Shown: in pieces, positions 7,861-32,873 of the stretch
Layout of the letters: every line of letters starts with the position of its first letter
Position numbering within the stretch: position 1 is the stretch's first letter
NCBI RefSeq assembly: GCF_014926405.1
Contig: NZ_JACXXJ020000005.1
Coordinates: forward strand, 377,001-441,000
DNA length: 64,000 nucleotides
Direction: 5' to 3'
DNA from: Agrobacterium vitis
GTDB taxonomy: Bacteria; Pseudomonadota; Alphaproteobacteria; Rhizobiales; Rhizobiaceae
Position numbers and translations under genes: made by a program
Notes under the pieces: generated by a model
What the model saw: only the letters and a program-made list of their open reading frames with translations
What the model was told of the DNA's origin: nothing
Databases searched by the model: none

Positions 7861-8028
7861 TGGCCAATCCGGGACAAGTGAGGTGCAGGCGATGGGCAAA
7901 ACAGAGTTGAAAACACACTTGCGAAGCGGCAAGACTGTGTATAGTTGATTTTTATTATCATGTTTTATCCGCCCAGTTCAAGCTTGGTGGGGTCAAGCTG
8001 AGTGGCACTGTGTATTAGAGGATCTTTG

Positions 8029-8844
8029 ATGGCGAGCGAACATCGCAAAATCCTGGCCGCAGGCGAGCCGGAGATGATTTTCGAAACGCAGGCGCTTGGT
8101 TTCACCGTCGATGGCCGTGCGTTGTTGCGGGATGTGTCGATCGGTTTCCGTAAGGGTGAGATTTCCGGCCTTGTCGGCCATAATGGTTCGGGCAAATCCA
8201 CATTGCTGAAGCTTCTCGCCCGCCAGCAAAGCCTGACATCCGGGACGATCCATTTTGCCGGGGCGGATGCCAGCGCGCTTGGGGCGCGTGATTTTGCCCG
8301 CAAGGTTGCCTATCTTCCACAGGACGTCACGGCGGCCCATGGCATGACCGTGCGCGAACTGGTGGCCTGCGGGCGCTATCCCTGGCATGGAGCGCTTGGC
8401 CGGTTTACCGAGATTGACAAAGCCAAGGTGGAAGAGGCGCTGGATCTTACCCATGTCCTGCCCATGGCGGACCGCATGGTGGATACGCTGTCGGGCGGCG
8501 AGCGCCAGCGGGCCTGGATCGCCATGCTGGTGGCGCAGGACAGCGAATGCCTGCTGCTGGATGAGCCGACCTCAGCGCTGGATATCGCCCATCAGATGGA
8601 CGTGCTGGCGCTGGTGCGCCGTCTGTCGCAGGAAAAGGGTTTGAGCGTCATCATCGTCCTGCATGACATCAACATGGCCAGCCGCTTCTGCGACCGGCTC
8701 TATGCGCTGAAGGCCGGGCAATTGATTGCCGAGGGCTCCCCCACCGCGCTGATGACCCGTGAGACGCTGAACGCCATCTACGGCGTCGATATGGACGTCA
8801 CCCGCCATCCAGGTTTGGAGATCCCGCTCGCCTATGTCTGCTGA
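8029..8844 (+). CDS. fhuC: Ferric hydroxamate ABC transporter ATP-binding protein
   Basis: 271 residues. ATG at 8029 follows AGAGGA with good spacing; an in-frame start 27 bases upstream is less likely. The motifs are complete: Walker A GHNGSGKST, Q-loop YLPQDVT, signature LSGGERQR, Walker B CLLLDEPTSALD and the switch His in VLHDIN. This is the FecE/FhuC/BtuD subfamily of metal-chelate importers. It is the first gene of a tightly overlapping fhuCDB operon (11-base overlap with fhuD) and powers uptake from periplasm to cytoplasm. It is divergent from the AraC gene, with about 100 bases for shared control. Confidence 0.93.
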   Translation: MASEHRKILAAGEPEMIFETQALGFTVDGRALLRDVSIGFRKGEISGLVGHNGSGKSTLLKLLARQQSLTSGTIHFAGADASALGARDFARKVAYLPQDVTAAHGMTVRELVACGRYPWHGALGRFTEIDKAKVEEALDLTHVLPMADRMVDTLSGGERQRAWIAMLVAQDSECLLLDEPTSALDIAHQMDVLALVRRLSQEKGLSVIIVLHDINMASRFCDRLYALKAGQLIAEGSPTALMTRETLNAIYGVDMDVTRHPGLEIPLAYVC

Positions 8845-9733
8845 TCCTTTCCTGCCGCTCAGCCGCCGCCATCTTTTGGCCGGGGGTGTGAGCCTGTTGA
8901 TGACATCCGTTGTTCATGCCGACGAAGCCCGGCACAGCCGTGTTGTCTGCCTGGATTACGGACTTGCCTCGACCCTGTTGGCCTTCGGGGTCACGCCGCT
9001 GGCGGTCGCGTCTCTGGCCGATTGGGACAAATGGGTGGAAGAGCCACGCATGCCTGATGGCGTGATCGATCTCGGCTCGTCCTGGGAGGTCAATTTCGAA
9101 TTGCTGATCGCCCTGAAGCCCGACCTGATCCTGTCGACGGCTTTTAACGACCCGCTGAACCCGCGGCTGCAAGCCTTGGCACCGCTGTTTCGCGCCAGCA
9201 TCTATGCGCCTGACACCACCGATATCCTGACCGCCTCTTACAGCGCGACGCGGGATCTCGGCAAGGTGATGCGGCTGGAGGCAAGGGCCGAGGCCTTTCT
9301 GGCCGAGGCCGATGCGTTTTTCGAGGCCTGCCGCGCCCGCCTTGCCCGACTGAATGCGCCGCCGGTGGCCCTGGTCAATTTTATGGATGCCCGCCATGTG
9401 CGGGTCTATACGGCGCCCGGTCTTTACCACGATGTCCTCCAGCGGCTGGGCCTCACCAATGCCTGGCAAAAGCCCGGCAATTACTGGGGCTTCGAGCTGA
9501 TCGGCATCGAGACCCTGGCGACAATCACTGATCCGCGCGCCCGGCTGATTGCCTTCGAGCCTGTTCCCGCCGATGTCATGCCGACCTTGGCAAAGAGCCC
9601 GCTCTGGCAGGCCTTGCCGATGGCAAAGCCGGAGCGCTTCGCTGTCCTGCCCTCGACCCTGATGTTCGGGATGGTGGTGGAAGCCATGCGCTTCGCGCGC
9701 CTGCTGACCGACTACTTGGACAGTCAAGCATGA
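8834..9733 (+). CDS. fhuD: Ferric hydroxamate-binding protein
   Basis: 299 residues. The N-terminus has SRRHLLAGG followed by a hydrophobic segment, resembling a Tat-type signal, with cleavage near VVHA-DE. No lipobox is present, so it should be soluble in the periplasm. The body follows the FhuD/BtuF-type fold: VVCLDYGLASTLLAFGVTPLAV at the start, LGSSWEVNFELLIALKPDLIL in the middle lobe and a long backbone helix. It delivers the ferric siderophore to FhuB/FhuC. It overlaps fhuC by 11 bases and fhuB by 4 (ATGA), indicating translational coupling. Confidence 0.88.
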   Translation: MSADPFLPLSRRHLLAGGVSLLMTSVVHADEARHSRVVCLDYGLASTLLAFGVTPLAVASLADWDKWVEEPRMPDGVIDLGSSWEVNFELLIALKPDLILSTAFNDPLNPRLQALAPLFRASIYAPDTTDILTASYSATRDLGKVMRLEARAEAFLAEADAFFEACRARLARLNAPPVALVNFMDARHVRVYTAPGLYHDVLQRLGLTNAWQKPGNYWGFELIGIETLATITDPRARLIAFEPVPADVMPTLAKSPLWQALPMAKPERFAVLPSTLMFGMVVEAMRFARLLTDYLDSQA

Positions 9734-11709
9734 ATATTCCGTTCTCTTCCAGACCGTCCTATCTAGGTCCGCTCCTCGTCACCCTGCTGCTTGCCGGTCT
9801 TGGGGGCCTGATGGCCTGGCACGGCATTGCGCCGGTACTGGCGCGGCCTGAAAGTGCGGGTTACGACATCGATTATGCCGTGCTTTACAATGCCACCCTG
9901 CCGCGTTTGGCGATGGCGTTAATCTGCGGGGGCGCGCTGTCTCTGTCGGGGGCGCTGTTCCAGCAGGTGCTGCGCAATCCGCTGGCCTCGCCGACCACGC
10001 TTGGCGTTTCGGCGGGGGCCAATCTCGCCATCGTCCTGGCGCTGCTGCTGTCGCCCGGTCTGCTGGGTTTTGGCCGCGATATGGTGGCGCTGGCCGGCAG
10101 CGCCCTTGCGGCGGGCCTGGTGCTGCTGATGGGCTTGCGGCGTGGCTTTTCACCGTTTTCGCTGGTTATGTCCGGGCTGGTGGTCAGCCTGTGGTGCGGG
10201 GCGCTGTCGAGCGTGCTGGTGCTGCTGAACGAGCGCTATCTGGTCAGCTTGTTCATCTGGGGGGCGGGATCGCTCGCCCAGCAAAGCTGGGTTCCGGCGC
10301 TCACCCTTCTGCCCAAGGTCGGGCTGGTGGCACTGGCCGCTGCCCTGTTGCTGCGGCCGCTTACTCTCGTCGAACTGGGGGAGGCGGGGGCCTCGGCGCT
10401 TGGCGTCAAGACCGGCCATTTGAGGGCGGCGGCTATTGCGCTTGCCGTGTTGCTGGCGGCCTTCGTCACCAGTGCGGTCGGGGTTGTCGGCTTTATCGGG
10501 CTTGTGGCACCAACGCTTGCCCGGCTGACTGGCGCGCGGCGCTCCGGCGCGCTTTTGGTCTGGTCGACCCTGATCGGTGCGGCGCTGTTGTTCTTTGCCG
10601 ATAGCGCATTGCTGCTGCTTGCCGACCAATTCAGCGACATGCTGCCGACCGGGGCTGTCACCGCCTTGTTCGGTTCGCCGCTGCTGCTGGTGTTGCTGCC
10701 GTTGTTGAAAACCCGGCATCGGATCATAGTCGAGCGGGTGCCGAAGCCTCGGCATCTTGCCTCGACGCGGACGGTCTTGATCGTGGGGCTGATCGGTGGC
10801 GTTGCGTTGATCGCCATGGCGCTACTGTTCGGGCGCAGTACCGTCGGCGATTGGGCTTTTCTGTCTCCTTCGCTCTACAGCGAAATTCTGCCTGTGCGCT
10901 TTCCCCGCGTTTTGGCCGCCTTTGCCTCTGGAGCCATGCTGGCGGTGGCCGGGTTGATCCTGCAACGGCTGACCGGCAATGAAATGGCCAGTCCGGAAGT
11001 GCTGGGCATCAGTGCCGGAGCAACCTTCGGGGTCACGGTGGCGGTGTTCTTCCTGGCGGCGCCAAGTCTTGGGATGCAACTCGGTTTTGCTGCGGCAGGT
11101 TCGCTGACTGTGTTGGCGGTGATTTTCCTGTTTGCCGCCCGGGCCGGTTTTGCGCCGGAACGGGTGCTGCTGGCGGGCATTGCGCTGAGCGCCATGGTCG
11201 ATGCCGTGGTCGGCGTGCTGGCGGCCAGCGGCGATCCCCGCGCCACCTTCCTGATGCGCTGGATGAGTGGCTCGACCTATAATGTCACGATGACGAGTGC
11301 CATCACGGTGACGGTCATCGCCGTGGCTCTGGTGGTGATTGTCGCCTTGCTGCGCCGCTGGCTGGACCTGCTGCCGCTGGGTCCTTCTGCTGCGGGCGCA
11401 CTTGGCGTGCCGCTCGCAATGGCCCGGCTGTTGCTGCTGCTGTTGGCAGGTGCTCTCAGCGGTGCGGCTACCCTGACGGTCGGCCCCTTGAGCTTCGTCG
11501 GCCTGATGGCCCCGCATCTGGCCCGCGAGGCCGGATTGCTGCGCGCCGGGCCGCAACTGACCGGTGCCGTGTTGATCGGCGGCGTGCTGATGATGATGGC
11601 CGACTGGATTGGCCGGACCCTGGTCCACCCTTACGAAATCGCCGCTGGCCTGGTCTCGGCGCTGATCGGCGCGCCGGTGCTGATCCTGCTGATGCGCCGG
11701 AGGGCTTGA
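9730..11709 (+). CDS. fhuB: Ferric hydroxamate ABC transporter permease, double-length
   Basis: 659 residues, the fused double permease peculiar to FhuB: two homologous FecCD-type halves (about 1-325 and 345-659). Each has around ten membrane helices and the conserved elements GALFQQVLRNPLASP / ALILQRLTGNEMASPEVLG-like, LGVSAGA / LGISAGA, and GFIGLVAPTLAR / SFVGLMAPHLAR near the ATPase-contact loop. A single polypeptide therefore makes the whole membrane channel with two FhuC subunits. The ATG overlaps the fhuD stop. The double length supports hydroxamate rather than heme or B12 specificity, since those systems use a single-length permease dimer. Confidence 0.93.
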   Translation: MNIPFSSRPSYLGPLLVTLLLAGLGGLMAWHGIAPVLARPESAGYDIDYAVLYNATLPRLAMALICGGALSLSGALFQQVLRNPLASPTTLGVSAGANLAIVLALLLSPGLLGFGRDMVALAGSALAAGLVLLMGLRRGFSPFSLVMSGLVVSLWCGALSSVLVLLNERYLVSLFIWGAGSLAQQSWVPALTLLPKVGLVALAAALLLRPLTLVELGEAGASALGVKTGHLRAAAIALAVLLAAFVTSAVGVVGFIGLVAPTLARLTGARRSGALLVWSTLIGAALLFFADSALLLLADQFSDMLPTGAVTALFGSPLLLVLLPLLKTRHRIIVERVPKPRHLASTRTVLIVGLIGGVALIAMALLFGRSTVGDWAFLSPSLYSEILPVRFPRVLAAFASGAMLAVAGLILQRLTGNEMASPEVLGISAGATFGVTVAVFFLAAPSLGMQLGFAAAGSLTVLAVIFLFAARAGFAPERVLLAGIALSAMVDAVVGVLAASGDPRATFLMRWMSGSTYNVTMTSAITVTVIAVALVVIVALLRRWLDLLPLGPSAAGALGVPLAMARLLLLLLAGALSGAATLTVGPLSFVGLMAPHLAREAGLLRAGPQLTGAVLIGGVLMMMADWIGRTLVHPYEIAAGLVSALIGAPVLILLMRRRA

Positions 11710-11781
11710 GGGACTTTCCTGCACCCCCGTTTCCAGGCATGATTTGCTCGTTGTGATGATGACGGGGAACGGAAAAAGCCC

Positions 11782-12162
11782 ATGCATAAGGGATCATGTC
11801 TTTGCGGCGCTGTTCGCTTTCAAGTGAACGGTGATTTACCGCCGCCGGATGCTTGCCATTGTTCTAAATGCCGCAAGCATTCTGGCCATTATTTTGCCTC
11901 GACCGATGTGCCAAAAGACAAAATAGAGATCGATGGCAGCGAGACTATCAGCTGGTATCAGTCCTCGGAAAAAGTCAGGCGCGGCTTCTGCTCAGTCTGC
12001 GGAACGTCGCTGTTCTTCGATCCGCCAGCAAGAGACTGGATCGCCGTTGCCATGGGCGCTTTCGATGGTCCCACCCAGACGCGGCTCAAAATGCATATCT
12101 TCGTTGCCGACAAGGGTGACTATTACGATATCGCTGACGGTTTGCCGCAGAACCAGCAATAG
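11782..12162 (+). CDS. GFA/CENP-V family zinc protein
   Basis: 126 residues, the normal length. Zinc-binding Cys pattern: SCLCGAV near the start, CHCSKCRK (about 31-38) and CSVCGTSLF (about 70-78). The family includes glutathione-dependent formaldehyde-activating enzyme, but most members with this arrangement have unproven substrates, so only the fold and metal sites are claimed. GGAACGGAAAAAG precedes the ATG. It follows fhuB by 72 bases on the same strand without an obvious terminator, but iron transport relevance is not implied by its family. Confidence 0.85.
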   Translation: MHKGSCLCGAVRFQVNGDLPPPDACHCSKCRKHSGHYFASTDVPKDKIEIDGSETISWYQSSEKVRRGFCSVCGTSLFFDPPARDWIAVAMGAFDGPTQTRLKMHIFVADKGDYYDIADGLPQNQQ

Positions 12163-21027: not shown

Positions 21028-21804
21028 TCAGCTCATCCAATTGCCGCCATCGACGTTATACGTCTGGGCCACCACGTAATCGGCTTCAGCGGAGGCCAGA
21101 AAAACCGCCATGCCGGTGAGATCGTTTGCAGTCCCCATGCGCCCAAACGGAACAGCCTCACCCACCAGCTTTTTCTTCTCGCCGGGGGCGCGGTTTTCAA
21201 ACTTGGCAAACAGCGCATCCACACCATCCCAATGCTCGCCATCGACCACGCCGGGGGCGATCGCATTGACATTGATGCTATGCTTGATCAGGTCCAGCCC
21301 GGCGGATTGGGTGAGCGAAATAATTGCCGCCTTGGTGGCGCAATAGACCGCCACCAGTGCTTCACCGCGTCGCCCAGCTTGGCTGGCCATATTGATGATC
21401 TTGCCACCCTTGCCACGGGCAATCATCGATTTTGCCGCCGCTTGCAGCATGAAGAGTGAGCCAGCCACGTTGATGGAAAACAGCCGATCATAGCTCTCGC
21501 GGGTGATGTCCACGATGGGCGCAAGATCAAACAAGGCGGCGTTGTTGATGAGAATGTCGAGGCCACCCGTCTTGTCTTCCACGGCCTTGATGGCGGCATC
21601 AATCGAAGCCTGATTGGTAACGTCAAGATGCACTGCATAGGCTTTTTCGCCAATGGCTTTCGCCGTTTCGGTCGCCCGTTCCATATTGATGTCGGCAATG
21701 GCAACCGTGGCACCTTCACGCACATAGGCCTCTGCAAAGGCCCGGCCAATGCCACGGGCGGAACCGGTAATCAGGGCAGATTTTCCGTCTAACCGTCCGC
21801 TCAT
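21028..21804 (-). CDS. smoS: Sorbitol dehydrogenase, short-chain type
   Basis: 258 residues, SDR family. Cofactor motif TGSARGIG, Asp in AIADIN (NAD preference), NNAA, catalytic Ser in MASQAG and YCATK with the YxxxK pair; C-terminal DGGNWMS. It oxidises D-sorbitol (glucitol) or galactitol to the ketose in the cytoplasm. The ATG overlaps the smoK stop by 4 bases, showing it is part of the transporter operon, the arrangement known for smoS in rhizobia and Rhodobacter. Confidence 0.92.
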
Positions 21805-22814
21805 GCTGACATTTCCTTCTCGTTTAGACCTTGCGCATTGAAACGATGAATGCGGCTGTCATCCGGGGTGAGAAACACCGTATCGCCGTGGCGGGCGGTG
21901 AAGTCGCCATCTGTGCGGGCGGTCATGGTGCCAAGGCCTTCGACATCCACATGCAAATGGGTGTCGGAGCCAAGATGTTCGGCAATGGTCACCTTGCCTT
22001 TCCACGCGCCGTCACTTGTGGAGAGCGTCACATGTTCCGGGCGAATGCCAATGGTGGCAGCACCATATTTTTGGGCTGTCGCGCCGGAAATCAGGTTCAT
22101 CTTCGGCGAGCCGATAAAGCCTGCAACAAACAGATTGGCGGGCTTGTGATACAACTCCATCGGTGAGCCAACCTGCTCGATATTGCCTTTGTTCAGCACC
22201 ACAATCTTATCCGCCATGGTCATGGCTTCGACCTGATCGTGGGTGACGTAGATTGACGTTGCCCCCAACTTTTGGTGCAGCTCGGTAATTTCCAGCCGCA
22301 TGTTGACGCGCAGCGCCGCATCAAGGTTGGACAGCGGCTCATCAAACAAAAAGCACGAGGGTGAGCGCACAATCGCCCGGCCAATCGCCACACGCTGGCG
22401 CTGACCGCCAGAAAGCTGGCGCGGTTTGCGGTCGAGATAATCCGTAAGGTTGAGGATGCGGGCGGCATCCGTGACCTTCTTGTCAATCTCGCCCTTATCA
22501 ATGCCCGCCATTTTCAGCGGAAAGCCAATGTTGGAGCGTACGCTCATATGCGGGTAAAGCGCATAGGACTGGAACACCATGGCAAGGCCGCGCTCAGAGG
22601 GTTTGCGGTCTGTGGCATCTGTGCCGTCAATAAAAATCTTGCCGCCGGATGTGTCCTCCAGTCCGGCAATCAGCCGCAGCAGGGTGGATTTGCCGCAGCC
22701 GGAGGGACCAACAAACACAACAAATTCGCCATTGTTGATCTCCAGATCAATGCCGGGAATGACCTTGTGCTCGGCAAAGGCTTTCGAGACGTTTTTAAGC
22801 TGAATACTGCCCAT
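21801..22814 (-). CDS. smoK: Sorbitol/mannitol ABC transporter ATP-binding protein
   Basis: 337 residues, MalK/UgpC-type. ATG at 22814 ([11 protein letters not shown]) follows AAAGGA; the frame opens 30 bases earlier without support. Walker [11 protein letters not shown]-loop [26 protein letters not shown], Walker [13 protein letters not shown], His loop YVTHDQ, then a C-terminal OB/TOBE regulatory domain (GIRPEHV). It energises the SmoFG permease and may be shared with other sugar transporters. Overlaps smoS by 4 bases. Confidence 0.94.
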
Positions 22815-22827
22815 GGAAAAATTCCTT

Positions 22828-23658
22828 TTACTTGACCGCGCCAAAAGTCAGTCCGCGCACCAGCTGTTTCTGGCTGAACCATCCGAGCACAACGATTGGA
22901 GCAATCGCCATGGTGGAGGCAGCCGAGAGCTTGGCGTAAAACAGGCCTTCGGGGCTGGAATAGGAGGCGATGAAAGTGGTCAGCGGTGCTGCCACTGATG
23001 TGGTGAGGTTGAGGGTCCAAAACGCCTCGTTCCACGACAGAATGATGTTGAGCAGCATGGTCGAGGCAATGCCCGGAACCGCCATCGGCGTCAGCACATA
23101 GATGATTTCCTTGATCAGGGATGCGCCATCCATGCGGGCGGCTTCGAGAATTTCGCCGGGAATTTCCTTGAAATAGGTGTAGAGCATCCAGATGATGATC
23201 GGCAGGTTGATCATGGTCAGCACGCCGACCAGACCGATGCGGCTATCGAGCAATCCACCATCGCGAAACAGCAGATAGATCGGGATCAGTGCGCCCACGG
23301 GCGGCATCATCTTGGTGGAGAGCATCCACATCAGCACATCCTTGGTGCGCTTGGTGGGCGAAAACGCCATGGCCCAAGCCGACGGGATGGCAATGACTAG
23401 GCCCAGAAGCGTGGAGCCAAAGGAGATGATCACTGAGTTCATGAAGTGGGCAAAATAGTCAGAGCGGCCCTGCACCTCGACATAGTTTTCCGTGGTCCAG
23501 TGGAAGAACAGAAACACCGGCGGCGAGGCGATCGCATCGCCCTCGCTTTTGAAACTGGTGAGGAAGGTCCACAGGATCGGGAAGAACAGCAACAGCCCGA
23601 TTGCCCATGCTATGAGTGTAAAGGTCAGCTTACGCTTGGTGGAAATTGCGCGTGCCAT
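22828..23658 (-). CDS. smoG: Sorbitol/mannitol ABC transporter permease (second)
   Basis: 276 residues, six membrane helices, MalG type. The EAA loop that contacts the ATPase reads [20 protein letters not shown], and the C-terminus ends [15 protein letters not shown], a typical MalG-family tail. It forms the membrane channel with SmoF. Only three bases separate it from the smoF stop, and smoK starts 13 bases after its own stop. Confidence 0.93.
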
Positions 23659-23661
23659 TGA

Positions 23662-24534
23662 TCAGCTCTCCAGGTTCTTGCCGATGAGGCGGATCAGGAA
23701 AAGGGCAACGATATTGGCAAGCACTACAGCCACAATACCGCCTGCGGACGCGCCGCCAATGTCAAATTGCAGCAGGGCCTGATTGTAGATCAGATAGGTC
23801 AGGTTGGTGCTGTCGGTGCCGGGTCCGCCATTGGTGGTGACGAGAATTTCGGCAAATACCGAGAGCAGGAAGATGGTCTCAATCAGCACCACCACGGTGA
23901 TGGCGCGGGCCATATGCGGCAGGGTGATATAGATGAATTTCGAGATCGGCCCTGCGCCATCCATTTCGGCGGCTTCCTTCTGCTCCTCGTCCAGCGATTG
24001 CAGGGCGGTGAGCAGGATCAGGGTGGCAAAGGGCAGCCATTGCCATGCCACAATGATGATGATGGAGAGCAGCGGAATGGTGGCCAGCCAATCCAGCGGC
24101 TCCAGCCCAAGCATGCGAAACGCGAAGGCAAACAGGCCGTTCACCGGGTTCATCAGCATGTTTTTCCACACCAAGGCGGCCACGGTTGGCATGATGAAAA
24201 ACGGCGAAATCACCAGAATGCGGACAATGCCTTGGCCAAACATTGGCTGATCCAGCAGCAGCGCCAGCGCAATGCCACCAATGATGGAAATGGCCAGCAC
24301 GCCACCCACCAATATCAGAGTGTTGGTGAGGGCTGCGAAAAACGCCGGATCGGTGAGGAAATATTGATAATTCAGTAGGCCGACGAAGTCATGCACGCCG
24401 GGCATCAGCAGATTATAGTTCAGAGTTGAGAAATAGATGGTCATGGCCAGCGGCACAATCATCCATGCAAACAGCAGGATAACCGAAGGGGCCATCATCC
24501 ATCGGGCCGAGGAATGGGTATGGGTCGTCGCCAT
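23662..24534 (-). CDS. smoF: Sorbitol/mannitol ABC transporter permease (first)
   Basis: 290 residues, MalF type with six helices. ATG at 24534 (MATTHTHSSARW) follows AAGAGG; an upstream in-frame start would run into the RIME-like repeat and is rejected. EAA loop KEAAEMDGAGPISKFIYITLP. It is separated from smoE by 259 bases that carry an inverted repeat pair, so binding protein and permeases may differ in message level. Confidence 0.92.
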   Translation of the reverse strand: MATTHTHSSARWMMAPSVILLFAWMIVPLAMTIYFSTLNYNLLMPGVHDFVGLLNYQYFLTDPAFFAALTNTLILVGGVLAISIIGGIALALLLDQPMFGQGIVRILVISPFFIMPTVAALVWKNMLMNPVNGLFAFAFRMLGLEPLDWLATIPLLSIIIIVAWQWLPFATLILLTALQSLDEEQKEAAEMDGAGPISKFIYITLPHMARAITVVVLIETIFLLSVFAEILVTTNGGPGTDSTNLTYLIYNQALLQFDIGGASAGGIVAVVLANIVALFLIRLIGKNLES

Positions 24535-24593
24535 GTCTGCCGCGCCTCTTGGGGGTGTTGGAAATTGAAATGTTCGTGTTGGAGTGTGTGGCC

Positions 24594-24777
24594 TACCCCC
24601 CTCTGTCCTGCCGGACATCTCCCCCTCAAGGGGGGAGATCGGATAGACGCATCTGCCAGTTTCTCCAGCACCGCTCGTATTATCGACCTGTTGACGAGAA
24701 AATCAGGAGCGAGACGTAAACTCCGAGTCGATCTCCCCCCTTGAGGGGGAGATGCCCGGCAGGGCAGAGGGGGGTAA
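24594..24777. repeat. RIME-like inverted repeat pair (type B) between smoE and smoF
   Basis: Left unit about 24594-24643 (CCCCCCTCTGTCCTGCCGG, ACATCTCCCCCTCAAGGGG) and inverted right unit 24728-24777, with 84 bases between. The same unit occurs at 2026-2184. Placed exactly after the first gene of the operon, where a processing or attenuation structure is common in binding-protein-dependent transporters. Confidence 0.82.
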
Positions 24778-24793
24778 ACCCCAACCTCAACCC

Positions 24794-26113
24794 TTACTTC
24801 TTCGGATAACCCGCCTTCTTCATTTCACGCTCGGTGAGTGTTTGCGCCGTTTTCAACGCCTGATCCACCGTGGCCTGACCGGCCAGTGCTGCCGAGAATT
24901 GCTGGCCAACGGCAGTGCCGATGCCCTGGAATTCCGGGATAGCCACATATTGCACGCCCTCATAAGGCACAGGCTTGACGGTGGGTTGCTTGGGGTCTGC
25001 CGAGTTGATGCTATCCAGCGTCATCTTCGCAAACGGTGCAGCCTTCTGGTAATCGGCATTGGCATAGAGCGAAGTGCGCGTGCCCGGAGGAACATTGGCC
25101 CAGCCGTCCTTTTCGGCCACCAGCTTCAGATAGTCCTTACTGGTTGCCCAGGCGATGAACTTTTCAGCGGCTTCGACCTTCTTGGAGCCAGCCGGAATGG
25201 CGAGGTTCCACGACCACAGCCAGTTGCCGCGCTTGCCAAGACCATTATCGGGAGCCAAAGCAAAGCCGACCTGATCAGCAACCTTGGATTCCTTCGGGTT
25301 GGTCACGAAGGAGGCAGCCACGGTGGCATCAATCCACATGCCGCATTTGCCAGTCTGGAACAGGGCGAGGTTTTCATTGAAGCCATTGGAAGACGCACCG
25401 GGAGGGCCGTTCTTCTTCATCAGGTCCACATAGAACTGAAGGGTCTTTTTCCACTCCGGCTGATCAAACTGTGGCTTCCACTGTTCATCAAACCAGCGTG
25501 CGCCAAAGGAGTTGGACATGGCGGAGAGGAAAGCGATGTTTTCACCCCAGCCAGCCTTGCCGCGCAGGCAGATGCCGTACACTTCCTTGGATTTATCGGT
25601 AATCTTGTCGGCGGCTTCCTTGATGAAGTCCCAGGTGGGGGCTTCCGGCATTTTCAGGCCCGCTTTTTCAAACAGATCCTTGCGATACATCACCATCGAG
25701 CTTTCGGCATAAAACGGTGCCGCATAAAGCTTGCCATCGACGGTCAGGCCAGAGCGCACCGGCGGCAGAAGGTCGGCTGCGTCGTAATCCTTGTCGGCAC
25801 TCAGCTTGTCCAGCGGTGCCAGCCAGCCCTGCTTGCCCCAGATCGGCGCTTCGTAAATGCCGATAGTCATCACGTCATACTGGCCGCCCTTGGTGGCCAC
25901 ATCGGTGGTCACTTTCTGGCGCAGCACGTTTTCTTCCAGCGTCACCCACTTCACATCAATGCCGGGATTCTTCTTGGTAAAATCATCCGTCAGCTTTTGC
26001 ATGCGGATCATGTCGCCGTTGTTGACGGTGGCAACCGTCAGCGTTTCGGCAGAGGTCACGCCAGCCATGGCGAAGACTGAGCAGGCGCCCAGCAATAGTG
26101 TTTTCAATGTCAT
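24794..26113 (-). CDS. smoE: Sorbitol/mannitol-binding protein
   Basis: 439 residues, extracellular solute-binding protein family 1. Signal peptide MTLKTLLLGACSVFAMAG with cleavage near TSA-ET; GGGAGGAAGAA precedes the ATG. Features include PGIDVKWVTLEENVLRQ, the hinge-region VMTIGIYEAP, YAAPFYAESSMVMYRKDLF and a C-terminal EREMKKAGYPKK helix. It captures the polyol in the periplasm for SmoFGK. First gene of the leftward operon; the 610-base upstream gap holds its promoter, with TACTCA repeated at 26231 and 26245, and the AT-rich leader of the opposite operon. Confidence 0.92.
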   Translation of the reverse strand: MTLKTLLLGACSVFAMAGVTSAETLTVATVNNGDMIRMQKLTDDFTKKNPGIDVKWVTLEENVLRQKVTTDVATKGGQYDVMTIGIYEAPIWGKQGWLAPLDKLSADKDYDAADLLPPVRSGLTVDGKLYAAPFYAESSMVMYRKDLFEKAGLKMPEAPTWDFIKEAADKITDKSKEVYGICLRGKAGWGENIAFLSAMSNSFGARWFDEQWKPQFDQPEWKKTLQFYVDLMKKNGPPGASSNGFNENLALFQTGKCGMWIDATVAASFVTNPKESKVADQVGFALAPDNGLGKRGNWLWSWNLAIPAGSKKVEAAEKFIAWATSKDYLKLVAEKDGWANVPPGTRTSLYANADYQKAAPFAKMTLDSINSADPKQPTVKPVPYEGVQYVAIPEFQGIGTAVGQQFSAALAGQATVDQALKTAQTLTEREMKKAGYPKK

Positions 26114-26479
26114 TTCTTCCTCCCAGAAGACCAGGTGGAACCCGGAGGCCCCTTGAGGGTCTGCCGACGGGCCACTGGTAAATCAACCGATAGACCTTGA
26201 TCTCACTCGCGATCTAATGAGCATTCGCTTTACTCATGGGCAAATACTCACATCCTGCCTCGAAATGTCAATCGCAATTCGTTGCTGCACTGCCGAAGTC
26301 ATGTTCGAATTCCTGTCCAGCGGCAGGCCTAATGTCGTAAACCCTCGTGATATTGAAGGAATTTTGAATATTTCAAATTTATCAGGAGCTTGATATTCAT
26401 TCGCGTCATCTACCAAATGTCATTGGTAAGGAATGCTGGACAGGCAAACATGTGGGAGAAATAGCCGCCATCGTGAAAA

Positions 26480-26700
26480 GGAGAATTGAAAAATACATAT
26501 TTATATTAATATATATCGTTATATGTATTTTAATTTACTTTATTTTTTTGTGGCTTTTTGAAAATATTGATTTACTTACATAAAATATAAATATAATTAT
26601 CAATATTGAATAATATATAAAATATAATCGATTATATTTATTATTTTTTAATAAATAAATTGACTCTTGCTAATAATATATCAAAATTCCTGGTTATGTT
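26480..26700. promoter_or_regulatory. Extremely AT-rich leader of the chitin-synthase-like operon
   Basis: From about 26480 to 26695 the strand is almost only A and T, with many TATATA-type steps, in sharp contrast to the surrounding high-GC DNA. A TTGACT box at 26660-26665 could be a -35 element. Such tracts are the targets of rhizobial Ros/MucR-type zinc-finger silencers and of H-NS-like proteins, so silencing of the operon is a plausible inference. No ORF is supported between 26114 and 26723. Confidence 0.6.
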
Positions 26701-26723
26701 GTTTTCGCTGGGGGGCGATAAGC

Positions 26724-28730
26724 ATGATTTTCGCGAATTGTTTATTCAATCGGCTTGTTTTGCCGATGGTTTTGCTTGTCCTTTTATCTTTATCAGCGCG
26801 CGCCATGGACGTTGACGAGGCGCGTCATCTATTGCAGCGCCTTACCTTCGGTGCCAGTCCGGCTGAAGTGACCACTTTAGTGAAACTGACGCGGGAAGAG
26901 GCTGTCGACCGTTTTCTTGACAGTCTCGCCCATCCGGAGTTACCGGAGCCGCCGCCGTTTGTTTCCCGCCCAAGGCCGGATTACTGGGCGAGTGGCTGGG
27001 AAAACCGCGACATGATCTTGCAACATGTGGCGGAGCGCGATCAGATGCAGGCGGTGTGGATCAGCCATATGATCGCGACCGATACGCCTGTTGCCGAAAG
27101 ACTGGCGTTGTTCTGGCATGGTCACTTCGTGTCGCGCTTCGATCCGGGCCGGGTCAGTGCGCCGCTCTTCGATCAGATCGCGCTGTTTCGTCGGGAAGGC
27201 GGCGGAAATTTTCGGGTCCTGCTGCGGGATGTCCTACGCGATCCGATGATGCTGACCAGCCTGGACAATGTCTGGAACACCAGCAGCCGTCCCAATGAAA
27301 ATCTGGCGCGCGAGCTGATGGAATTGTTCACGCTTGGCATCGGACACTATGACCAGCGCGATGTGCGTGAAGTGTCGCGGGTCCTGGCGGGGCATGGCGT
27401 GGATTTTGAAGGTGGCTGGCGCTATCGCTTCGCTGTCGATCAGGCGGATACCGGGGAAAAGATCGTTCTGGGCCAGCCTATTGCGGCGGGCAGTCAGGAT
27501 CAGATTGATCGCCTTACGGATATTCTCTTAGCGCAACCGCAAACAGCCGAGTTTATTGCCGGAAAATTCTATGCCGCCTTCGTTTCGATACGTCCGAACC
27601 CTGAGGCCACCAACCGGCTGGCGGGTGTCTTGCGCGATCACGATTATGAGCTGCGGCCCTTCTTGCGCGCCCTGTTGCTCAGCCCGGAGTTCTGGAGCCC
27701 GGCCAACAGAGGCGATCTGGTCAAATCGCCGATTGATCTCGTTGTCGGGTTCTGCCGCAGCTTCGGTCTGACCCCGCCGGACGCGATGATTTTGGTAACC
27801 TATCTCGATAAGCTTGGGCAGACACCGTTCATGGCACCGTCCGTTGCCGGTTGGCGCGAGGGGACGTCTTGGCTGAACATGAAGACCTTGGTGCTTCGGC
27901 GGCTTGTGGTCTCCAGGCTTTGGGATGCGATGCGGGTTGCTGATCGCACCCCCAAACCAGGTGATCTCGCCATCCGTTTCAGCTCGGAATTTATCATGGT
28001 GCCGACCGTGTTTACCGTGCGGGTCAATGGGGCTGAGGTTGCCACCGTCAGGCAAACCATTGGACTGGATCTGCAAAAGCAGCGGACCCAGGGCGATAAT
28101 GGCGGTTTGAAACCGATGTGGGAAACCGCAATCATCCCGGCGGAAAACCTGCCCGCGGAGATCCGCAGTGTCGAGATAACCCATGTTTCCAACGATCCTG
28201 ACAGCCGCCTGTTCGTCAATTGGGTCGAGGTTGCGGGACGCCGCTATCCGCCGCAGCTTAGCCGCTGGAGCCCGTCGGATGCGCCCTGTGCGGGTGCCCC
28301 TCGCGGCATGTTCTACTGTAATGTCGGTCTGGTGTTCGATATAGCGCCTTTCGATACGCAGCAGGCGACGATAGATGATCTGCGGGCCGACCATAACAGT
28401 CACATTGAATATACGACGGCACGCCTACAATCAAAAGATGTATTCGATGCCCGGGCGCCTCTCGAACAGGCATTCGAGGTGATGATGGCGCGTGTTGGCG
28501 GGGGGTCCATCAGCCGTGAGAACCTTGCTGGGCAATGGCTTCTGGCGCGGCCTGTCTTGTCTGCCCGGGCGGAAAAGCCAGCGCTCGTTCCCTCCGTTGC
28601 CCAGCCTGTGGTTCAACCAATTGCCATGACAATGCAGCCTGTCGGCAAGACCGGCGATGCTGAACGAAGTTCGGCATTGATCGATCTTATCCGGTCGATG
28701 ACGACAGATCCGCAATACAACCTTAAGTAA
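26724..28730 (+). CDS. Exported DUF1800 protein with carbohydrate-binding-like module
   Basis: 668 residues. ATG at 26724 follows GGGGGCG and starts a signal peptide (MIFANCLFNR, cleavage after SARA); an in-frame ATG 57 bases earlier is less suitable. Residues about 25-410 are a DUF1800 domain: LLQRLTFGASP, LFWHGHFVS, NENLARELMELFTLG and VSRVLAGHG. Residues about 420-530 look like a CBM60/CBM36-type beta-sandwich inserted in the C-terminal part (FTVRVNGAEVATV, VEITHVSNDPDSRLFVNW, VEVAGRRY), a fold that binds xylan-like glycans through calcium. The C-terminus resumes DUF1800-like helices. First gene of a three-gene operon with DUF1501 and a GT2 enzyme. The biochemical role of DUF1800 is unknown. 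Confidence 0.85.
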   Translation: MIFANCLFNRLVLPMVLLVLLSLSARAMDVDEARHLLQRLTFGASPAEVTTLVKLTREEAVDRFLDSLAHPELPEPPPFVSRPRPDYWASGWENRDMILQHVAERDQMQAVWISHMIATDTPVAERLALFWHGHFVSRFDPGRVSAPLFDQIALFRREGGGNFRVLLRDVLRDPMMLTSLDNVWNTSSRPNENLARELMELFTLGIGHYDQRDVREVSRVLAGHGVDFEGGWRYRFAVDQADTGEKIVLGQPIAAGSQDQIDRLTDILLAQPQTAEFIAGKFYAAFVSIRPNPEATNRLAGVLRDHDYELRPFLRALLLSPEFWSPANRGDLVKSPIDLVVGFCRSFGLTPPDAMILVTYLDKLGQTPFMAPSVAGWREGTSWLNMKTLVLRRLVVSRLWDAMRVADRTPKPGDLAIRFSSEFIMVPTVFTVRVNGAEVATVRQTIGLDLQKQRTQGDNGGLKPMWETAIIPAENLPAEIRSVEITHVSNDPDSRLFVNWVEVAGRRYPPQLSRWSPSDAPCAGAPRGMFYCNVGLVFDIAPFDTQQATIDDLRADHNSHIEYTTARLQSKDVFDARAPLEQAFEVMMARVGGGSISRENLAGQWLLARPVLSARAEKPALVPSVAQPVVQPIAMTMQPVGKTGDAERSSALIDLIRSMTTDPQYNLK

Positions 28731-28760
28731 TTTTTTCACCATTATATTTCGGGGGAATGA

Positions 28761-29981
28761 ATGGCTATGTTTAACAGGCATGGGTTATCGCGCCGTGAAT
28801 TTGCGACATGGATGGGTCGGTGTCTTGCGCTAGGCTCTATGCCGCTGTGGGCAAGGCAGGCTTTGGCGGCGGCCGGACCGGGCGCTGCCGGTTCTGCCCG
28901 CCGGTTGATTTTACTCGAACTTTTCGGTGGCAATGATGCCCTGAACACACTGGTGCCTTTCAAAGACCCGGTCTACCGGCATTTGCGCCCAACCATCGGC
29001 CTGAAAGGCGATGAAATCCTGTCACTCAACTCGGAGTTGGGATTCAATGCGGCTTGGCGGCAGATGGCGGATCTTTATCACAATGGCGAAATCGCCATCA
29101 TCCAGGATGTCGGCTATCCCGATAACAATCTCTCGCATTTCCAATCTGCGGAAATTTGGGCGGGCGGGTCCAGGAAAGGCATTTCCAGTGGCGGTTGGGT
29201 TAGCCAGGTCTTGCAGGCGAACCGGAAGGATGCAGGACCCTTCGATGCGGATGGTGTGGTATTTTCAGGCAATCAGGACCTGCTTGAGGGCGAGGGCATG
29301 CGCATCCTGACAGTTCACGATAAGCATGCATTGCACAGCGGAGCTCCGAGCGCGATGGCTGGCACCGACAAGACGGATGATCATGCTGCGCTCGCCTATC
29401 TGACCCGCCTTATGGACGACCAGCAGGAGGTTATCGGGCGGGTTGCCGCCAAGTTGAAGGGCAATAACCGTTTCGAGGCGCGGTTTACACGGGATTATTA
29501 CATGGACCCGATTGATGCTCAGACAGCTCTTTTGCTCTGGATGTTTGAGCAGGATGTCAAGTCACCACTGTTCAAGATCAGCATCGGCGGCTTCGATCAG
29601 CATTCCAATCTGCGGGGCGAGCACGAGCGCCTTCTGACGAAAGTTCAAAACACCCTCATAGGCCTGCGTCGCGGGCTGAAGGAGATTGGCGTCTGGAACG
29701 ATACGCTTGTCATTGCCCATTCGGAATTTGGCCGCCGACCGGCTGAAAATGCCTCTGGCGGCACCGACCATGGTTCTTGCAGTCCCGTTATCATGATGGG
29801 GGGCGGGATCAAGCCTGGGCTTTATGGCAGCCGCAGTGATCTGGAAAAGCTCGATGCGGAAGGCAATCCGGTTTTCACCACCGATTTTCGTAGTGTCTAT
29901 GCGTCGGTGATCGGCAATTTCTGGCGGTTTCCAACCAATCCGATTGCCGCACAGGGTTTTGCGCCCTTGGCCTTGTTCTAG
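28761..29981 (+). CDS. Tat-exported DUF1501 protein
   Basis: 406 residues; GGGGGAATGA precedes the ATG. The N-terminus carries a twin-arginine signal (LSRREFATWMGR) ending near ALAAAG. The domain belongs to DUF1501, an alkaline-phosphatase/sulfatase-like fold: LILLELFGGNDALNTLVP near the start, HFQSAEIW, and VIAHSEFGRRPAENASGGTDHG with MMGGGIKPG near the end, where the metal-binding His/Asp residues lie. DUF1501 and DUF1800 genes are often neighbours, suggesting that the proteins act together in the periplasm or at the surface. Here the pair is coupled to a polysaccharide synthase, pointing to modification or export of that glycan (inference). Confidence 0.87.
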   Translation: MAMFNRHGLSRREFATWMGRCLALGSMPLWARQALAAAGPGAAGSARRLILLELFGGNDALNTLVPFKDPVYRHLRPTIGLKGDEILSLNSELGFNAAWRQMADLYHNGEIAIIQDVGYPDNNLSHFQSAEIWAGGSRKGISSGGWVSQVLQANRKDAGPFDADGVVFSGNQDLLEGEGMRILTVHDKHALHSGAPSAMAGTDKTDDHAALAYLTRLMDDQQEVIGRVAAKLKGNNRFEARFTRDYYMDPIDAQTALLLWMFEQDVKSPLFKISIGGFDQHSNLRGEHERLLTKVQNTLIGLRRGLKEIGVWNDTLVIAHSEFGRRPAENASGGTDHGSCSPVIMMGGGIKPGLYGSRSDLEKLDAEGNPVFTTDFRSVYASVIGNFWRFPTNPIAAQGFAPLALF

Positions 29982-30014
29982 AGGCTGTCGGGCTCAGTAT
30001 GACCCTGACAGCCT
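29982..30014. repeat. Hairpin repeat (GTCTGTC family), second copy
   Basis: AGGCTGTC and GACAGCCT with a 17-base loop (GGGCTCAGTATGACCCT), matching the copy at 15041-15077. It begins one base after the DUF1501 stop, in the 68-base gap before the synthase gene, so it may tune expression of the third gene. Confidence 0.68.
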
Positions 30015-30049
30015 GCAAAGACTGACCCGAATAATTTAAGGATATTGCT

Positions 30050-31960
30050 GTGACATTGTTCTCTCCAGTTGCACCTGACGGTGCAGCCGGACAGGCTGCC
30101 GCTTTGCGCGCGCCTGTCTCGGTGCAGAATGCGCCTCTCAACACCGGTTGGTTTGATGATCAACCCTTCGATCAGGCCTCGTCCGAGGGTACGGAAATTC
30201 TTGCCTGCCTCACACTTTTCAACGAGCCTGCCGAGGCGGTGGCGGCGACATTGGCCTGCCTTGCCGCCAATCAGGCTGTGTTGCTCAGCCGAAATGGCCC
30301 TATACAGCGGCTGGAAGTGGCCATCGTGCTGGATGGCCGCGACCGCGTTCACCCAGAGACCGAGGCACTGTTCAACCGGCTTGGCTTCGATCTCGATTGG
30401 GGTTGCGATCCTGAGGCAGCGGGCATCGGCCAGCATGGGGCGGATGAGGCGCAAGTTCGCGTTCAGACCCGCCTTATTCCGATGGATCTGCTGACCGGGG
30501 TCAGCGGCAATCCTCTTCGCGTGCATCTGGCGGTGAAGGACCGCAACAGGGGTAAGCTGGATAGCCATGCCTTCTTCTTTCGAAGCCTTGCCGAACGCCT
30601 GCGGCCAGATTTTGTCTTGCAGATCGATGCCGGGTCGAGACCTGCTGCCGATTGCCTACCGGCATTGCTGGCGCAGATGGAACGCGAGCCTGACTGTGCA
30701 GCCCTTGCCACCAATATCGTCATGGAAGACGCCGCCTTGACCGATTGGCTGCAAAGCTGGCAACAGGCAGATTTTCTCTGGCAGAAATTATCCGATTGGC
30801 CGATTGGCAACGGTTTGGGCTATCTTGAAGTCGTGCCGGGGCAGGCCAGCCTGTTCAGAATGTCGGCCATGAGACGCGGGGCAAACGGCGATCCTCTGGC
30901 AGCCTATCTTCGCGGGCTTTCCAGGCCGAAGAGCCTGATGGAGGCCAATCTGTTTCTCGCGGAAGATCGAATCATCGGCGCGGAAATCGTCAAAAGCCAT
31001 CCTGCCTGCACCATCTGCTATCATCACGATGCCAATCTTGTCACCGATGGCTGCGCGACGGTTGGCGAATTGCTGCGCCAGCGCCGCCGTTGGACAAACA
31101 GTACGCTTGTGGCGCGCCTGGTGGCCATCGGCAGCCTTGCCGATCTGCTGTGGCATGGTCGCCTGCCGCCTGCACGCTGGTGCTCAATGGCACTGGCGCT
31201 GGCCTGGACTCTGCTGCAATTGCTGGAACAATGGTTCATCCCAGCGTCACTGGCCCTGCTTGTCTCCCTGACGTCAGGGGTTTGGCAAGACGAGGCGGGC
31301 CAGAGTTTGGCATGGGGAATGGCAGCCGGTGTGTTGCTGTTCTGGCTTTATTGTCTGGCCAGCATGAAGGCGCGGGAGGGGAAAAGGTCTCTCAGCCGTA
31401 GGCTGCATGGCTGCTTGCATGGCCTTGGTCTTGGCATCCTTCTGGCCTGCACGGTCCTGGGGTTTGCCATCTGCCTTGTTGAGGTCGGTCCTGTCATTCA
31501 GGGCGTGATCCTGATGGTTGCCCTGATCCTTGGCATGGCGGTCTTGCACCATTCGTCCCGCAGGATGTCCGATCTGCTGAGACTATTTGTGATCTATATT
31601 CCCTCCGCACCCGTCGCCAGCTTTTATCTGCTGAGTTATGCGCTTGCCAATTTCCACGATGTCAGTTGGGGCACCAAGGGCTTGGTCAATGACAGCAGGA
31701 CTGCCATTCCGGCTGGCTGGCGCCAAATGCGGTTGCGGCTTTTGACCCTTTGGGTCGTGAGCAATACGGGCTTGGTCTGGCTGGTGGTGGGTATCGTGCC
31801 GGGCGGCGCAATCAGCGTCCTTCAGTATGCCTGCCTGCCGGTCGTCGGGCAGATCGCCCTTGCGTCCTTGCTCTTGATATCGGCATGCTATCGTAAGCCC
31901 AATTTGCCGTTTACAAAGATCAGAGACCGAGCAGATAGCGTGCCGCATCTTCATCGATGA
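30050..31960 (+). CDS. Chitin-synthase-like membrane glycosyltransferase (GT2)
   Basis: 636 residues; GTG start with AAGGAT 8 bases upstream. The order of motifs follows fungal chitin synthases: LTLFNEP (54-60), VLDGRDRV (93-100), KDRNRGKLDSHAFFF (163-177), QIDAGSRP (191-198, metal/UDP Asp), GYLEVVPGQASLFR (257-270), NLFLAEDRI (300-308, catalytic Asp), QRRRWTNST (344-352, acceptor/processive motif) and, after several helices, NFHDVSWGTKG (534-544). Hydrophobic segments lie at about 380-410, 420-437, 455-500, 508-533 and 565-620. Bacterial NodC has only the generic DxD/ED/QxxRW set, so this is a different branch. The likely product is a beta-1,4-GlcNAc or related homopolymer extruded through the membrane. 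The last 41 bases overlap the convergent SorC gene. Confidence 0.85.
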   Translation: MTLFSPVAPDGAAGQAAALRAPVSVQNAPLNTGWFDDQPFDQASSEGTEILACLTLFNEPAEAVAATLACLAANQAVLLSRNGPIQRLEVAIVLDGRDRVHPETEALFNRLGFDLDWGCDPEAAGIGQHGADEAQVRVQTRLIPMDLLTGVSGNPLRVHLAVKDRNRGKLDSHAFFFRSLAERLRPDFVLQIDAGSRPAADCLPALLAQMEREPDCAALATNIVMEDAALTDWLQSWQQADFLWQKLSDWPIGNGLGYLEVVPGQASLFRMSAMRRGANGDPLAAYLRGLSRPKSLMEANLFLAEDRIIGAEIVKSHPACTICYHHDANLVTDGCATVGELLRQRRRWTNSTLVARLVAIGSLADLLWHGRLPPARWCSMALALAWTLLQLLEQWFIPASLALLVSLTSGVWQDEAGQSLAWGMAAGVLLFWLYCLASMKAREGKRSLSRRLHGCLHGLGLGILLACTVLGFAICLVEVGPVIQGVILMVALILGMAVLHHSSRRMSDLLRLFVIYIPSAPVASFYLLSYALANFHDVSWGTKGLVNDSRTAIPAGWRQMRLRLLTLWVVSNTGLVWLVVGIVPGGAISVLQYACLPVVGQIALASLLLISACYRKPNLPFTKIRDRADSVPHLHR

Positions 31961-32873
31961 TCAGCGCGTTGACATGGCCACCCCGTGCAGCGGCGCGGAT
32001 GGCGGCGTGTTTGCGTTTGCCGCGCGCCATGCCGATGACGACAGAGGTTTGGCGCGACGGGATCGCCATACTGGCGACACGGCTGTTGACCGGGTCGTCC
32101 AGCAGCTTGCCCTTGGCATCGAAAATCCAGCCGCAGATTTCGCCGGTGGCACCGATGGCCAGAAGATTGCGCATTTCGGCTTCCTTCAAGAATCCGTCCT
32201 GAAGCAAGGGCGCGTTGAGGGTCATCTCACCGATACCGACGAAGGTCACATCGGATTGGCTGCCAAGCGCGATGGTGGGAGCAACTAGCGGCTGGCGGTG
32301 CAAAAGGTCGCGCTCCTCTGCGCTGGAAACGATGACCGGTAGTGGCATCGGAAAATGCCGGGCCTTCACCGCATCGGCCATGGAAAAGATCACGTTGAAA
32401 TAGGCCGCCGATCCATCCGGGCTGATATTGCCGGTCAGCGAGACGATCTTGTGCTGCGGACAGTCCATCTGCGGCAATTGGTCGATCATGGCGCGCAGCG
32501 TGCGGCCCGTGCCCATGGCGATGGTGAGCGGGTCCGGCCGTTTCAGCCAGCGCTCCAGTTCGGCGGCACCCGCCTCGGCAATGCCTGTCGCGGTGGCGTC
32601 CGAGCCGGGATCGGTTGGCACGACCTCGACCTGCTTCAGGCCATAGGCCTGCTTCACCGCATCGGCCAGTTCCAGACAGACAGCAATCGGGTGATCGAGG
32701 CGGACCTTGACCAGCTTTTCGGCAACCGCCAGGGACACCAGCCGCTGGGCGCTCTGGCGGGAAATATTCATCGCCGCGGCGATCTCGTCCTGCGTGCGGC
32801 CAGCAACATAATAGAGCCAGCCGGCGCGGGCGGCGTCGTCCAGCCTGGCGTTTGAACCTACTTTGCGTGCCAT
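31920..32873 (-). CDS. SorC-family sugar-binding transcriptional regulator
   Basis: 317 residues. The N-terminal helix-turn-helix (AGRTQDEIAAAMNISRQSAQRLVSLAV, read from about residue 25) is followed by the sugar-phosphate-like sensor domain with AMGTGRTLRAMI, IVSLTGNI, GIGEMT and NLLAIGATGEICG. The family responds to phosphorylated sugars or polyols. It has the same orientation as the smo operon and would sit directly upstream of smoE were it not for the synthase operon between them, so it is probably the smo regulator (SmoC-type). This is inference from order. Its start faces the aldolase gene across 146 bases. Confidence 0.85.
   Translation of the reverse strand: MARKVGSNARLDDAARAGWLYYVAGRTQDEIAAAMNISRQSAQRLVSLAVAEKLVKVRLDHPIAVCLELADAVKQAYGLKQVEVVPTDPGSDATATGIAEAGAAELERWLKRPDPLTIAMGTGRTLRAMIDQLPQMDCPQHKIVSLTGNISPDGSAAYFNVIFSMADAVKARHFPMPLPVIVSSAEERDLLHRQPLVAPTIALGSQSDVTFVGIGEMTLNAPLLQDGFLKEAEMRNLLAIGATGEICGWIFDAKGKLLDDPVNSRVASMAIPSRQTSVVIGMARGKRKHAAIRAAARGGHVNALIIDEDAARYLLGL

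What the first reader, a model, noticed from the sequence alone, without database searches (positions are those of the whole stretch)
26724..31960. Operon of a fungal-type chitin-synthase homologue with DUF1800 and DUF1501 proteins
The GT2 enzyme at 30050-31960 carries the whole ordered motif set of fungal chitin synthases, including DGRDRV, GKLDSH, VVPGQAS, LAEDR, QRRRW and the C-terminal HDVSWGTKG, which NodC and bacterial cellulose or hyaluronan synthases lack. It is the third gene after a Sec-exported DUF1800 protein with a carbohydrate-binding-like module and a Tat-exported DUF1501 protein. The close spacing (30 and 68 bases) supports one operon. I know of no characterised system joining these three families; a secreted chitin-like polymer with dedicated periplasmic partners is the inference.
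Basis: partly seen in the sequence, partly recalled or inferred. Interest (0 to 1): 0.92.

Follow-up and report, generated by a model that had tools for sequence, protein, structure and literature searches.

The report
Bacterial chitin-synthase operon in Agrobacterium vitis
A grapevine bacterium carries an acquired chitin-making enzyme gene next to two exported helper proteins; the gene set is real and was described in 2016, but what it makes is still untested as far as was found here.

Summary
Window 26724-31960 holds DUF1800, DUF1501 and a chitin synthase (CHS) on one strand, 30 and 68 bases apart. The third protein is a eukaryote-type division 1 CHS by profile, motifs and tree, not NodC.

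It is not new. Goncalves et al. 2016 (PMC5122149; abstract, passages and part of one section read) described bacterial chs genes, named Agrobacterium vitis, and reported the conserved DUF1800-DUF1501-CHS operon, the Tat signal and horizontal transfer.

Added here: (1) CHS and this DUF1800 type occur in the same genomes in two genera (5 of 36; 8 of 25). (2) The operon sits between a regulator and a sugar-ABC operon that abut in 8 of 9 relatives looked at. (3) DUF1501 is predicted to have the alkaline-phosphatase/sulfatase fold. (4) DUF1800 carries a CBM60-like module; an acidic loop position of CBM60-type relatives is N in 37 of 43 aligned proteins. (5) All three genes are under purifying selection.

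Best reading: a GlcNAc oligomer or polymer is made and exported, then bound and modified in the periplasm. The product is untested.

The parts
26440..26700 (+). AT-rich leader of the operon (GC 0.195, against 0.586 for the window); likely promoter region
   Evidence: GC count; promoter-like hexamers at 26558-26586 and 26660-26687, but the scan found no more sites than shuffles (4 against mean 3.9), so the promoter is inference.
26724..28730 (+). DUF1800 protein, 668 aa: N-terminal export signal (by eye), helical DUF1800 domain about 30-405, CBM60-like beta module about 413-541, low-confidence stretch 613-643, C-terminal tail ending DPQYNLK
28761..29981 (+). DUF1501 protein, 406 aa: twin-arginine signal and alkaline-phosphatase/sulfatase-superfamily fold
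30050..31960 (+). Chitin synthase (GT2, division 1 type), 636 aa: catalytic domain about 49-360, then hydrophobic membrane part with the SWGTKG motif (HDVSWGTKG at 536-544)
26114..31919 (.). Inserted block: everything between the solute-binding-protein gene and the regulator gene, whose matches lie only about 156-163 bases apart in 8 of 9 relatives looked at
   Evidence: the ninth (G014, L077) has the regulator without the solute-binding gene in its 1.5 kb flanks.

Best explanation
A horizontally acquired operon for making and handling a beta-1,4-GlcNAc product. The CHS in the inner membrane polymerises GlcNAc from UDP-GlcNAc and pushes the chain to the periplasm through its own membrane channel (inferred from homology to solved chitin synthases). 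The Sec-exported DUF1800 protein binds the emerging sugar chain with its CBM60-like module. The Tat-exported DUF1501 protein, which has a phosphatase/sulfatase-type fold, removes or transfers a phosphate- or sulfate-type group, or otherwise edits the chain. Shown: the homology, motifs, gene layout, co-inheritance, position between two genes that abut in relatives, and purifying selection. Inferred: one transcript, substrate, export, and the roles of both DUF proteins. I lean to a short or modified chitooligosaccharide rather than a structural fibre, because some other bacterial CHS genes lie among sugar-decorating and peptide-synthetase genes.
For: CHS motifs and profile matches. Tree with 37 bacterial CHS as one clade (90/83, moderate support) beside three eukaryotic CHS, with NodC on a long separate branch. 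CHS and DUF1800 in the same 5 of 36 genomes of the window's genus, 31 lacking both, and in the same 8 of 25 genomes of G659's genus (taken to be Pectobacterium), 17 lacking both; Fisher 2.7e-6 and 9.2e-7, not corrected for relatedness. Two more genomes of the window's genus found by DUF1800 (G965, G977) show DUF1501 and the first 51-58 residues of CHS at the locus edge. Whole triad in 9 of 17 species-genome loci. Purifying selection: dN/dS 0.10-0.13 for DUF1800, 0.07-0.12 for DUF1501, 0.25-0.32 for CHS over four comparisons. Predicted folds. Decorating or peptide-synthetase-type neighbours of CHS at 5 of 10 loci where I scanned some neighbours: YdjC protein, two sulfotransferases, thioesterase and ABC exporter (L019), sulfotransferase (L010, L018), A-PCP-TE (L013), NRPS (L022).
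Against: No activity or product is known. The inserted block holds no outer-membrane export protein or deacetylase gene; the rest of the genome was not searched for them. Eight of 17 bacterial CHS loci show no DUF pair in the fetched flanks (three of these contigs are under 17 kb), so CHS does not always come with the DUFs. The other 5 of the 10 loci scanned for neighbours gave no decorating enzyme. One genome of the window's family (G304, L037) keeps both DUF genes beside a CHS cut short after about 116 residues. DUF1501 and DUF1800 relatives far outnumber CHS relatives (4487 and 3145 against 52, searches that scored capped candidate lists), so the families are not chitin-specific as such. 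CBM60 ligands known from memory (xylan, cellulose, galactan) are not GlcNAc polymers.
Confidence: 0.55

Rival explanations
1. Structural exopolysaccharide: the CHS makes long chitin chains that leave the cell as a biofilm or attachment matrix, with the DUF proteins as assembly factors.
For: Full CHS membrane part and SWGTKG motif as in the solved eukaryotic enzymes. Goncalves 2016 suggests a chitin EPS as one option. A carbohydrate-binding module suits a matrix protein.
Against: No outer-membrane export gene in the inserted block, which holds only the three genes. Decorating enzymes beside some other bacterial CHS suggest small products.
Confidence: 0.25
2. Nod-factor-like signal: a short chitooligosaccharide for plant interaction, made by a CHS working in place of NodC.
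For: Many of the carriers known in 2016 are plant pathogens (abstract). Sulfotransferases and a YdjC protein, as for decorated chitooligosaccharides, lie beside CHS in L010, L018 and L019.
Against: No acyltransferase, deacetylase or sulfotransferase in the window's inserted block. The enzyme is not NodC. Relatives also occur in soil, cyanobacterial and Geobacter genomes.
Confidence: 0.15
3. The DUF1800-DUF1501 pair does a general envelope job and merely travelled with chs as a passenger.
For: Thousands of DUF1501/DUF1800 relatives against 52 CHS relatives; 6 of 6 short loci of more distant DUF1800 relatives (L030-L035) show DUF1501 next to it and no CHS hit in about 4 kb; the pair survives beside a truncated CHS in G304.
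Against: Same-genome occurrence in two genera, the triad in two separate CHS subclades, and a shared sequence signature of the CHS-side DUF1800 type.
Confidence: 0.2

Closest known systems
Bacterial chitin synthase operons (Goncalves et al. 2016, PMC5122149)
   Same: A. vitis among the carriers, same three families in one operon, Tat signal on DUF1501, short N-terminus without the eukaryotic N-terminal domain. [quoted passage not shown] the figure itself is not held, so I could not see which genome they flank.
   Different: This window is another genome of the A. vitis group: its CHS is 88-91% identical to the A. vitis proteins listed. Predicted folds, co-occurrence counts and the insertion point are added here.
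Eukaryotic division 1 chitin synthases (P. sojae Chs1 7wjm, yeast Chs1 7xs6, Candida Chs2 7stl)
   Same: Catalytic motifs, membrane part and WGTKG.
   Different: Short N-terminus; PF08407 not found; falls in a bacterial clade of its own.
NodC (TIGR04242)
   Same: GT2 enzyme; shares the D-G, E-D-R and R-W positions.
   Different: Long separate branch (2.93) in the tree, no WGTKG, DxD in place of DxG.
Hyaluronan synthase
   Same: Weak GT2 match over 95 positions (E 0.0009).
   Different: No match over the C-terminal CHS region.
CBM60
   Different: The window protein does not hit PF16841; a loop position that is D or E in the six CBM60-type proteins is N in the other 37 of 43.
Alkaline phosphatase / sulfatase superfamily (NPP, YejM, LtaS, sulfatases)
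   Same: Predicted fold of DUF1501.
   Different: No sequence match to any solved structure at E up to 10; the metal-ligand set was not mapped.

Membership tests
Chitin synthase (division 1 CHS) | Pfam CHS domains above cut-off | tested here: met
   PF03142 62.7 bits (cut-off 27) and PF01644 56.5 bits (cut-off 25).
Chitin synthase (division 1 CHS) | Ordered motifs DG..DxG..EDR..Q(R/K)RRW and C-terminal WGTKG | tested here: met
   Window row, and 36 of 37 bacterial and 3 of 3 eukaryotic rows; positions. Yeast-type variation QRKRW occurs in one eukaryotic row (P. sojae).
Chitin synthase (division 1 CHS) | Groups with CHS rather than NodC in a tree | tested here: met
   40 CHS rows apart from 6 NodC rows (100/100); only three eukaryotic rows, so the donor lineage was not tested.
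Chitin synthase (division 1 CHS) | N-terminal domain PF08407 typical of eukaryotic division 1 | tested here: not met
   Not among the matches; the 2016 paper says bacterial CHS lack it, so this bars a eukaryotic-type full-length CHS, not a bacterial CHS.
Chitin synthase (division 1 CHS) | Makes chitin from UDP-GlcNAc | not testable with these tools
   Needs an assay.
Bacterial CHS operon of Goncalves 2016 | DUF1800, DUF1501 and chs co-oriented and adjacent | tested here: met
   same layout in 8 of 17 loci, with CHS first in one more (L013). One transcript was not tested.
NodC | Match to TIGR04242 above its cut-off | tested here: not met
   No NCBIfam hit for the window protein at E 0.001; best match in the window's genome is E 3.8e-9, below the cut-off.
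CBM60 | PF16841 match | tested here: not met
   None for P0001 at E up to 10.
CBM60 | CBM60 fold | tested here: met
CBM60 | Calcium-site residues | tested here: inconclusive
   A loop position is N in 37 of 43 and D/E in 6 of 43; that it is the calcium ligand is recalled, not shown.
Alkaline phosphatase superfamily (DUF1501) | Superfamily fold | tested here: met
   Predicted model.
Alkaline phosphatase superfamily (DUF1501) | Two-metal ligand set and nucleophile | tested here: inconclusive
   Invariant D59, S125, H126, D279, H281, E322, H337 suit a metal site, but were not mapped in space.

The most novel reading that the evidence does not exclude
The CHS-side DUF1800 and DUF1501 proteins are a dedicated two-part periplasmic machine of a new synthase-dependent glycan pathway: a re-tooled CBM60 module that holds a GlcNAc chain for a phosphatase/sulfatase-type enzyme that edits it, giving a bacterial product based on chitin but not seen before.
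Probability: 0.3. Interest if true: 0.7.

Novelty: already known. Interest (0 to 1): 0.35.

Why it matters
If bacteria really make chitin or chitooligosaccharides with a eukaryote-type enzyme, that changes who makes a molecule that plants read as a fungal signal, and it would give first functions to DUF1800 and DUF1501, two large families without an assigned one in Pfam. The gene set is known, but no test of its product turned up in the full-text searches made here (open-licence PMC papers only). The co-occurrence and the predicted folds make the question directly testable.

Tried and rejected
NodC reading of the GT2: rejected. Hyaluronan- or cellulose-synthase reading: rejected on profile scores only; neither was put in the tree. 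The neighbouring ABC transporter and regulator as parts of the system: not supported, since they abut each other in 8 of 9 relatives looked at and the triad lies between them here. Plasmid or phage copies of CHS: none found at E 1e-5. Solved structures of DUF1501 or DUF1800 by sequence: none useful. Rfam families at the locus: none at gathering scores; one tRNA elsewhere. Terminator and promoter scans: no excess over shuffles. Donor lineage and direction of transfer: not tested, as only three eukaryotic CHS were in the tree; the 2016 paper argues eukaryote to bacteria. A second DUF pair reported for A. vitis in that paper was not seen at E 1e-30 in this genome; not pursued. Fold matches to the helical part of DUF1800: none listed, but that part was not folded or searched by itself, so nothing is claimed about it.
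Full report
What is there. Three co-oriented genes lie at 26724-31960: DUF1800 (668 aa), DUF1501 (406 aa) and a GT2 of 636 aa, with gaps of 30 and 68 bases. The GT2 matches both Pfam chitin synthase models above cut-off and solved chitin synthases (P. sojae Chs1, E 1.8e-32, residues 49-550). With a 24-row alignment the six solved chitin synthase sequences score E 7.7e-73 to 5.8e-89, while the four hyaluronan synthase sequences score 0.0009 to 0.0024 over 95 positions and nothing else appears at E up to 1. WGTKG is in 36 of 37 bacterial CHS rows, 3 of 3 eukaryotic rows and 0 of 6 NodC rows.

Where it comes from. The eight named homologues of 88-91% identity are Agrobacterium vitis, so the window is a genome of that species group. 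There is one CHS in the genome. CHS is rare: matches in 5 of 60 relatives, own genome included; in 5 of 394 genomes of the window's family, one of them only a fragment; in 8 of 25 genomes of G659's genus; and 17 loci in the collection of one genome for each of 84,980 species, at the sensitivity of two peptide patterns. None was found in the plasmid or phage collections at E 1e-5.

Already published. Goncalves et al. 2016 (PMC5122149; I read the abstract and section list, passages, and part 1 of 2 of the section on bacterial genes) report a dozen bacteria with division 1 chs, among them A. vitis, most in a conserved operon-like set with DUF1800 and DUF1501. They infer joint horizontal transfer, note the Tat motif, and propose a chitin exopolysaccharide or chitooligosaccharides. 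[quoted passage not shown] the figure is not held, so which genome they flank was not seen. A Dickeya fangzhongdai genome paper (PMC6329079) lists a DUF1501 gene followed by a glycosyltransferase with the label K00698 among species-specific genes (one passage; that K00698 means chitin synthase is recalled). A third paper (PMC6653060) only names DUF1800 and DUF1501 in a table of type VI secretion genes (one passage). Full-text searches for functional work on bacterial CHS found none (open-licence PMC papers only, seen as listings apart from these three).

Linkage, with misses. Of the 17 species-genome loci, 9 carry all three genes: eight in the order DUF1800-DUF1501-CHS and one (L013, Polaromonas MAG) with CHS, an A-PCP-TE gene and, further on, the DUF pair. 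Eight show CHS without the pair in the fetched flanks; three of those contigs are under 17 kb. In the window's genus, 36 genomes were searched for CHS (E 1e-10) and for DUF1800 (E 1e-30): the same five have both and 31 have neither; four of the 36 are under 90% complete. Twenty-four more genomes were searched for DUF1800; two of them have it (G965, G977), and their loci show DUF1501 and the start of CHS at the edge. In G659's genus the same 8 of 25 have both and 17 have neither, on one strand, with matches 1.43-1.47 kb apart. Against a strict link: one CHS of the window's family (G114, L039, apparently the contig of L020) has no DUF pair, and G304 has both DUF genes beside a CHS cut short after about 116 residues. 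The Fisher values (2.7e-6, 9.2e-7) ignore relatedness.

Insertion. The regulator was found in 9 of 9 relatives chosen; eight of the nine were without CHS and the ninth, G970, without DUF1800. In 8 of 9 its match lies 156-163 bases from that of the solute-binding protein; in G014 (L077) the solute-binding gene is not in the 1.5 kb flanks. Five of these were looked at over 17 kb, and the two permeases and the ATPase follow in all five. In the window, two A. vitis genomes (L006, L007) and A. taibaishanense (L009) the three genes sit between regulator and solute-binding protein. So the regulator and ABC genes look like the landing site, not demonstrated parts of the system. The stretch 26440-26700 before DUF1800 has GC 0.195, while the genes themselves are near the window average (0.578 against 0.586).

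Selection. Against four related loci (L006-L009) dN/dS is 0.10-0.13 (DUF1800), 0.07-0.12 (DUF1501) and 0.25-0.32 (CHS) (Nei-Gojobori; dS is over 1 for these genes against L009, so that comparison is rough). All three genes are kept as proteins. The CHS changes fastest at the protein level; against L006 its changes lie mostly outside the catalytic core, against L007 this is less clear.

Tree. 46 rows: 37 bacterial CHS form one clade with moderate support (90/83), three eukaryotic CHS lie beside it (74/81 among themselves), and six NodC are far away (branch 2.93, 100/100). The bacterial clade is wide, including cyanobacterial, Geobacter, Steroidobacter, Cellvibrionaceae and soil lineages; three rows have very long branches, and the donor cannot be judged with three eukaryotic rows. 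The triad occurs in two separate subclades, of 14 and of 16 rows (L013 in the latter). P0049, P0050 and P0052, also in the latter, share longest-contig lengths with DUF1800 hits P0214, P0215 and P0208, which I take as the same contigs.

Wider context. I scanned 21 chosen neighbours of CHS from 10 loci, not every gene. Five of the 10 gave decorating or peptide-synthetase-type genes: L019 (YdjC protein, two sulfotransferases, a thioesterase, a penicillin-amidase-type protein, an ABC exporter), L010 and L018 (a sulfotransferase each), L013 (A-PCP-TE) and L022 (NRPS). Five did not: L014, L015, L016, L017 (an ABC protein) and L020. The 2016 paper already noted secondary-metabolism clusters and a NodH-like sulfotransferase. 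This leans towards modified oligosaccharides for part of the family, but the window's own block holds none of these enzymes.

Verdict. A correct and well-read observation of a known, uncharacterised gene set. That the CHS is a working chitin-type synthase is likely from its conserved motifs and selection; the roles of the DUF proteins remain inference.

Noticed in passing
L037 (G304:C50) 5892-9461: DUF1800 and DUF1501 match A. rubi-type proteins over their length (94-95%), but the CHS matches only its first about 116 residues.
   Followed up: partly
L019 9105-19812: Cellvibrionaceae CHS in a cluster with thioesterase, YdjC, FAD/NAD-binding protein, two sulfotransferases, penicillin-amidase-type protein and ABC exporter: looks like a pathway for a decorated chitooligosaccharide product.
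   Followed up: partly
L013 296-10011: Polaromonas MAG has CHS, then an adenylation-carrier-thioesterase gene, then, further on, DUF1800 and DUF1501.
   Followed up: partly
L018 1405-4213: Leptolyngbya MAG CHS followed directly by a sulfotransferase gene.
   Followed up: no
window 21801-26113 and 31920-32873: A sugar-type ABC transporter operon and a Sugar-bind-domain regulator, adjacent in 8 of 9 relatives looked at, are separated here by the CHS operon, which may alter their regulation.
   Followed up: partly
window 8001-12000: Strong AT skew (-0.249) and raised GC (0.632) against the rest of the window.
   Followed up: no
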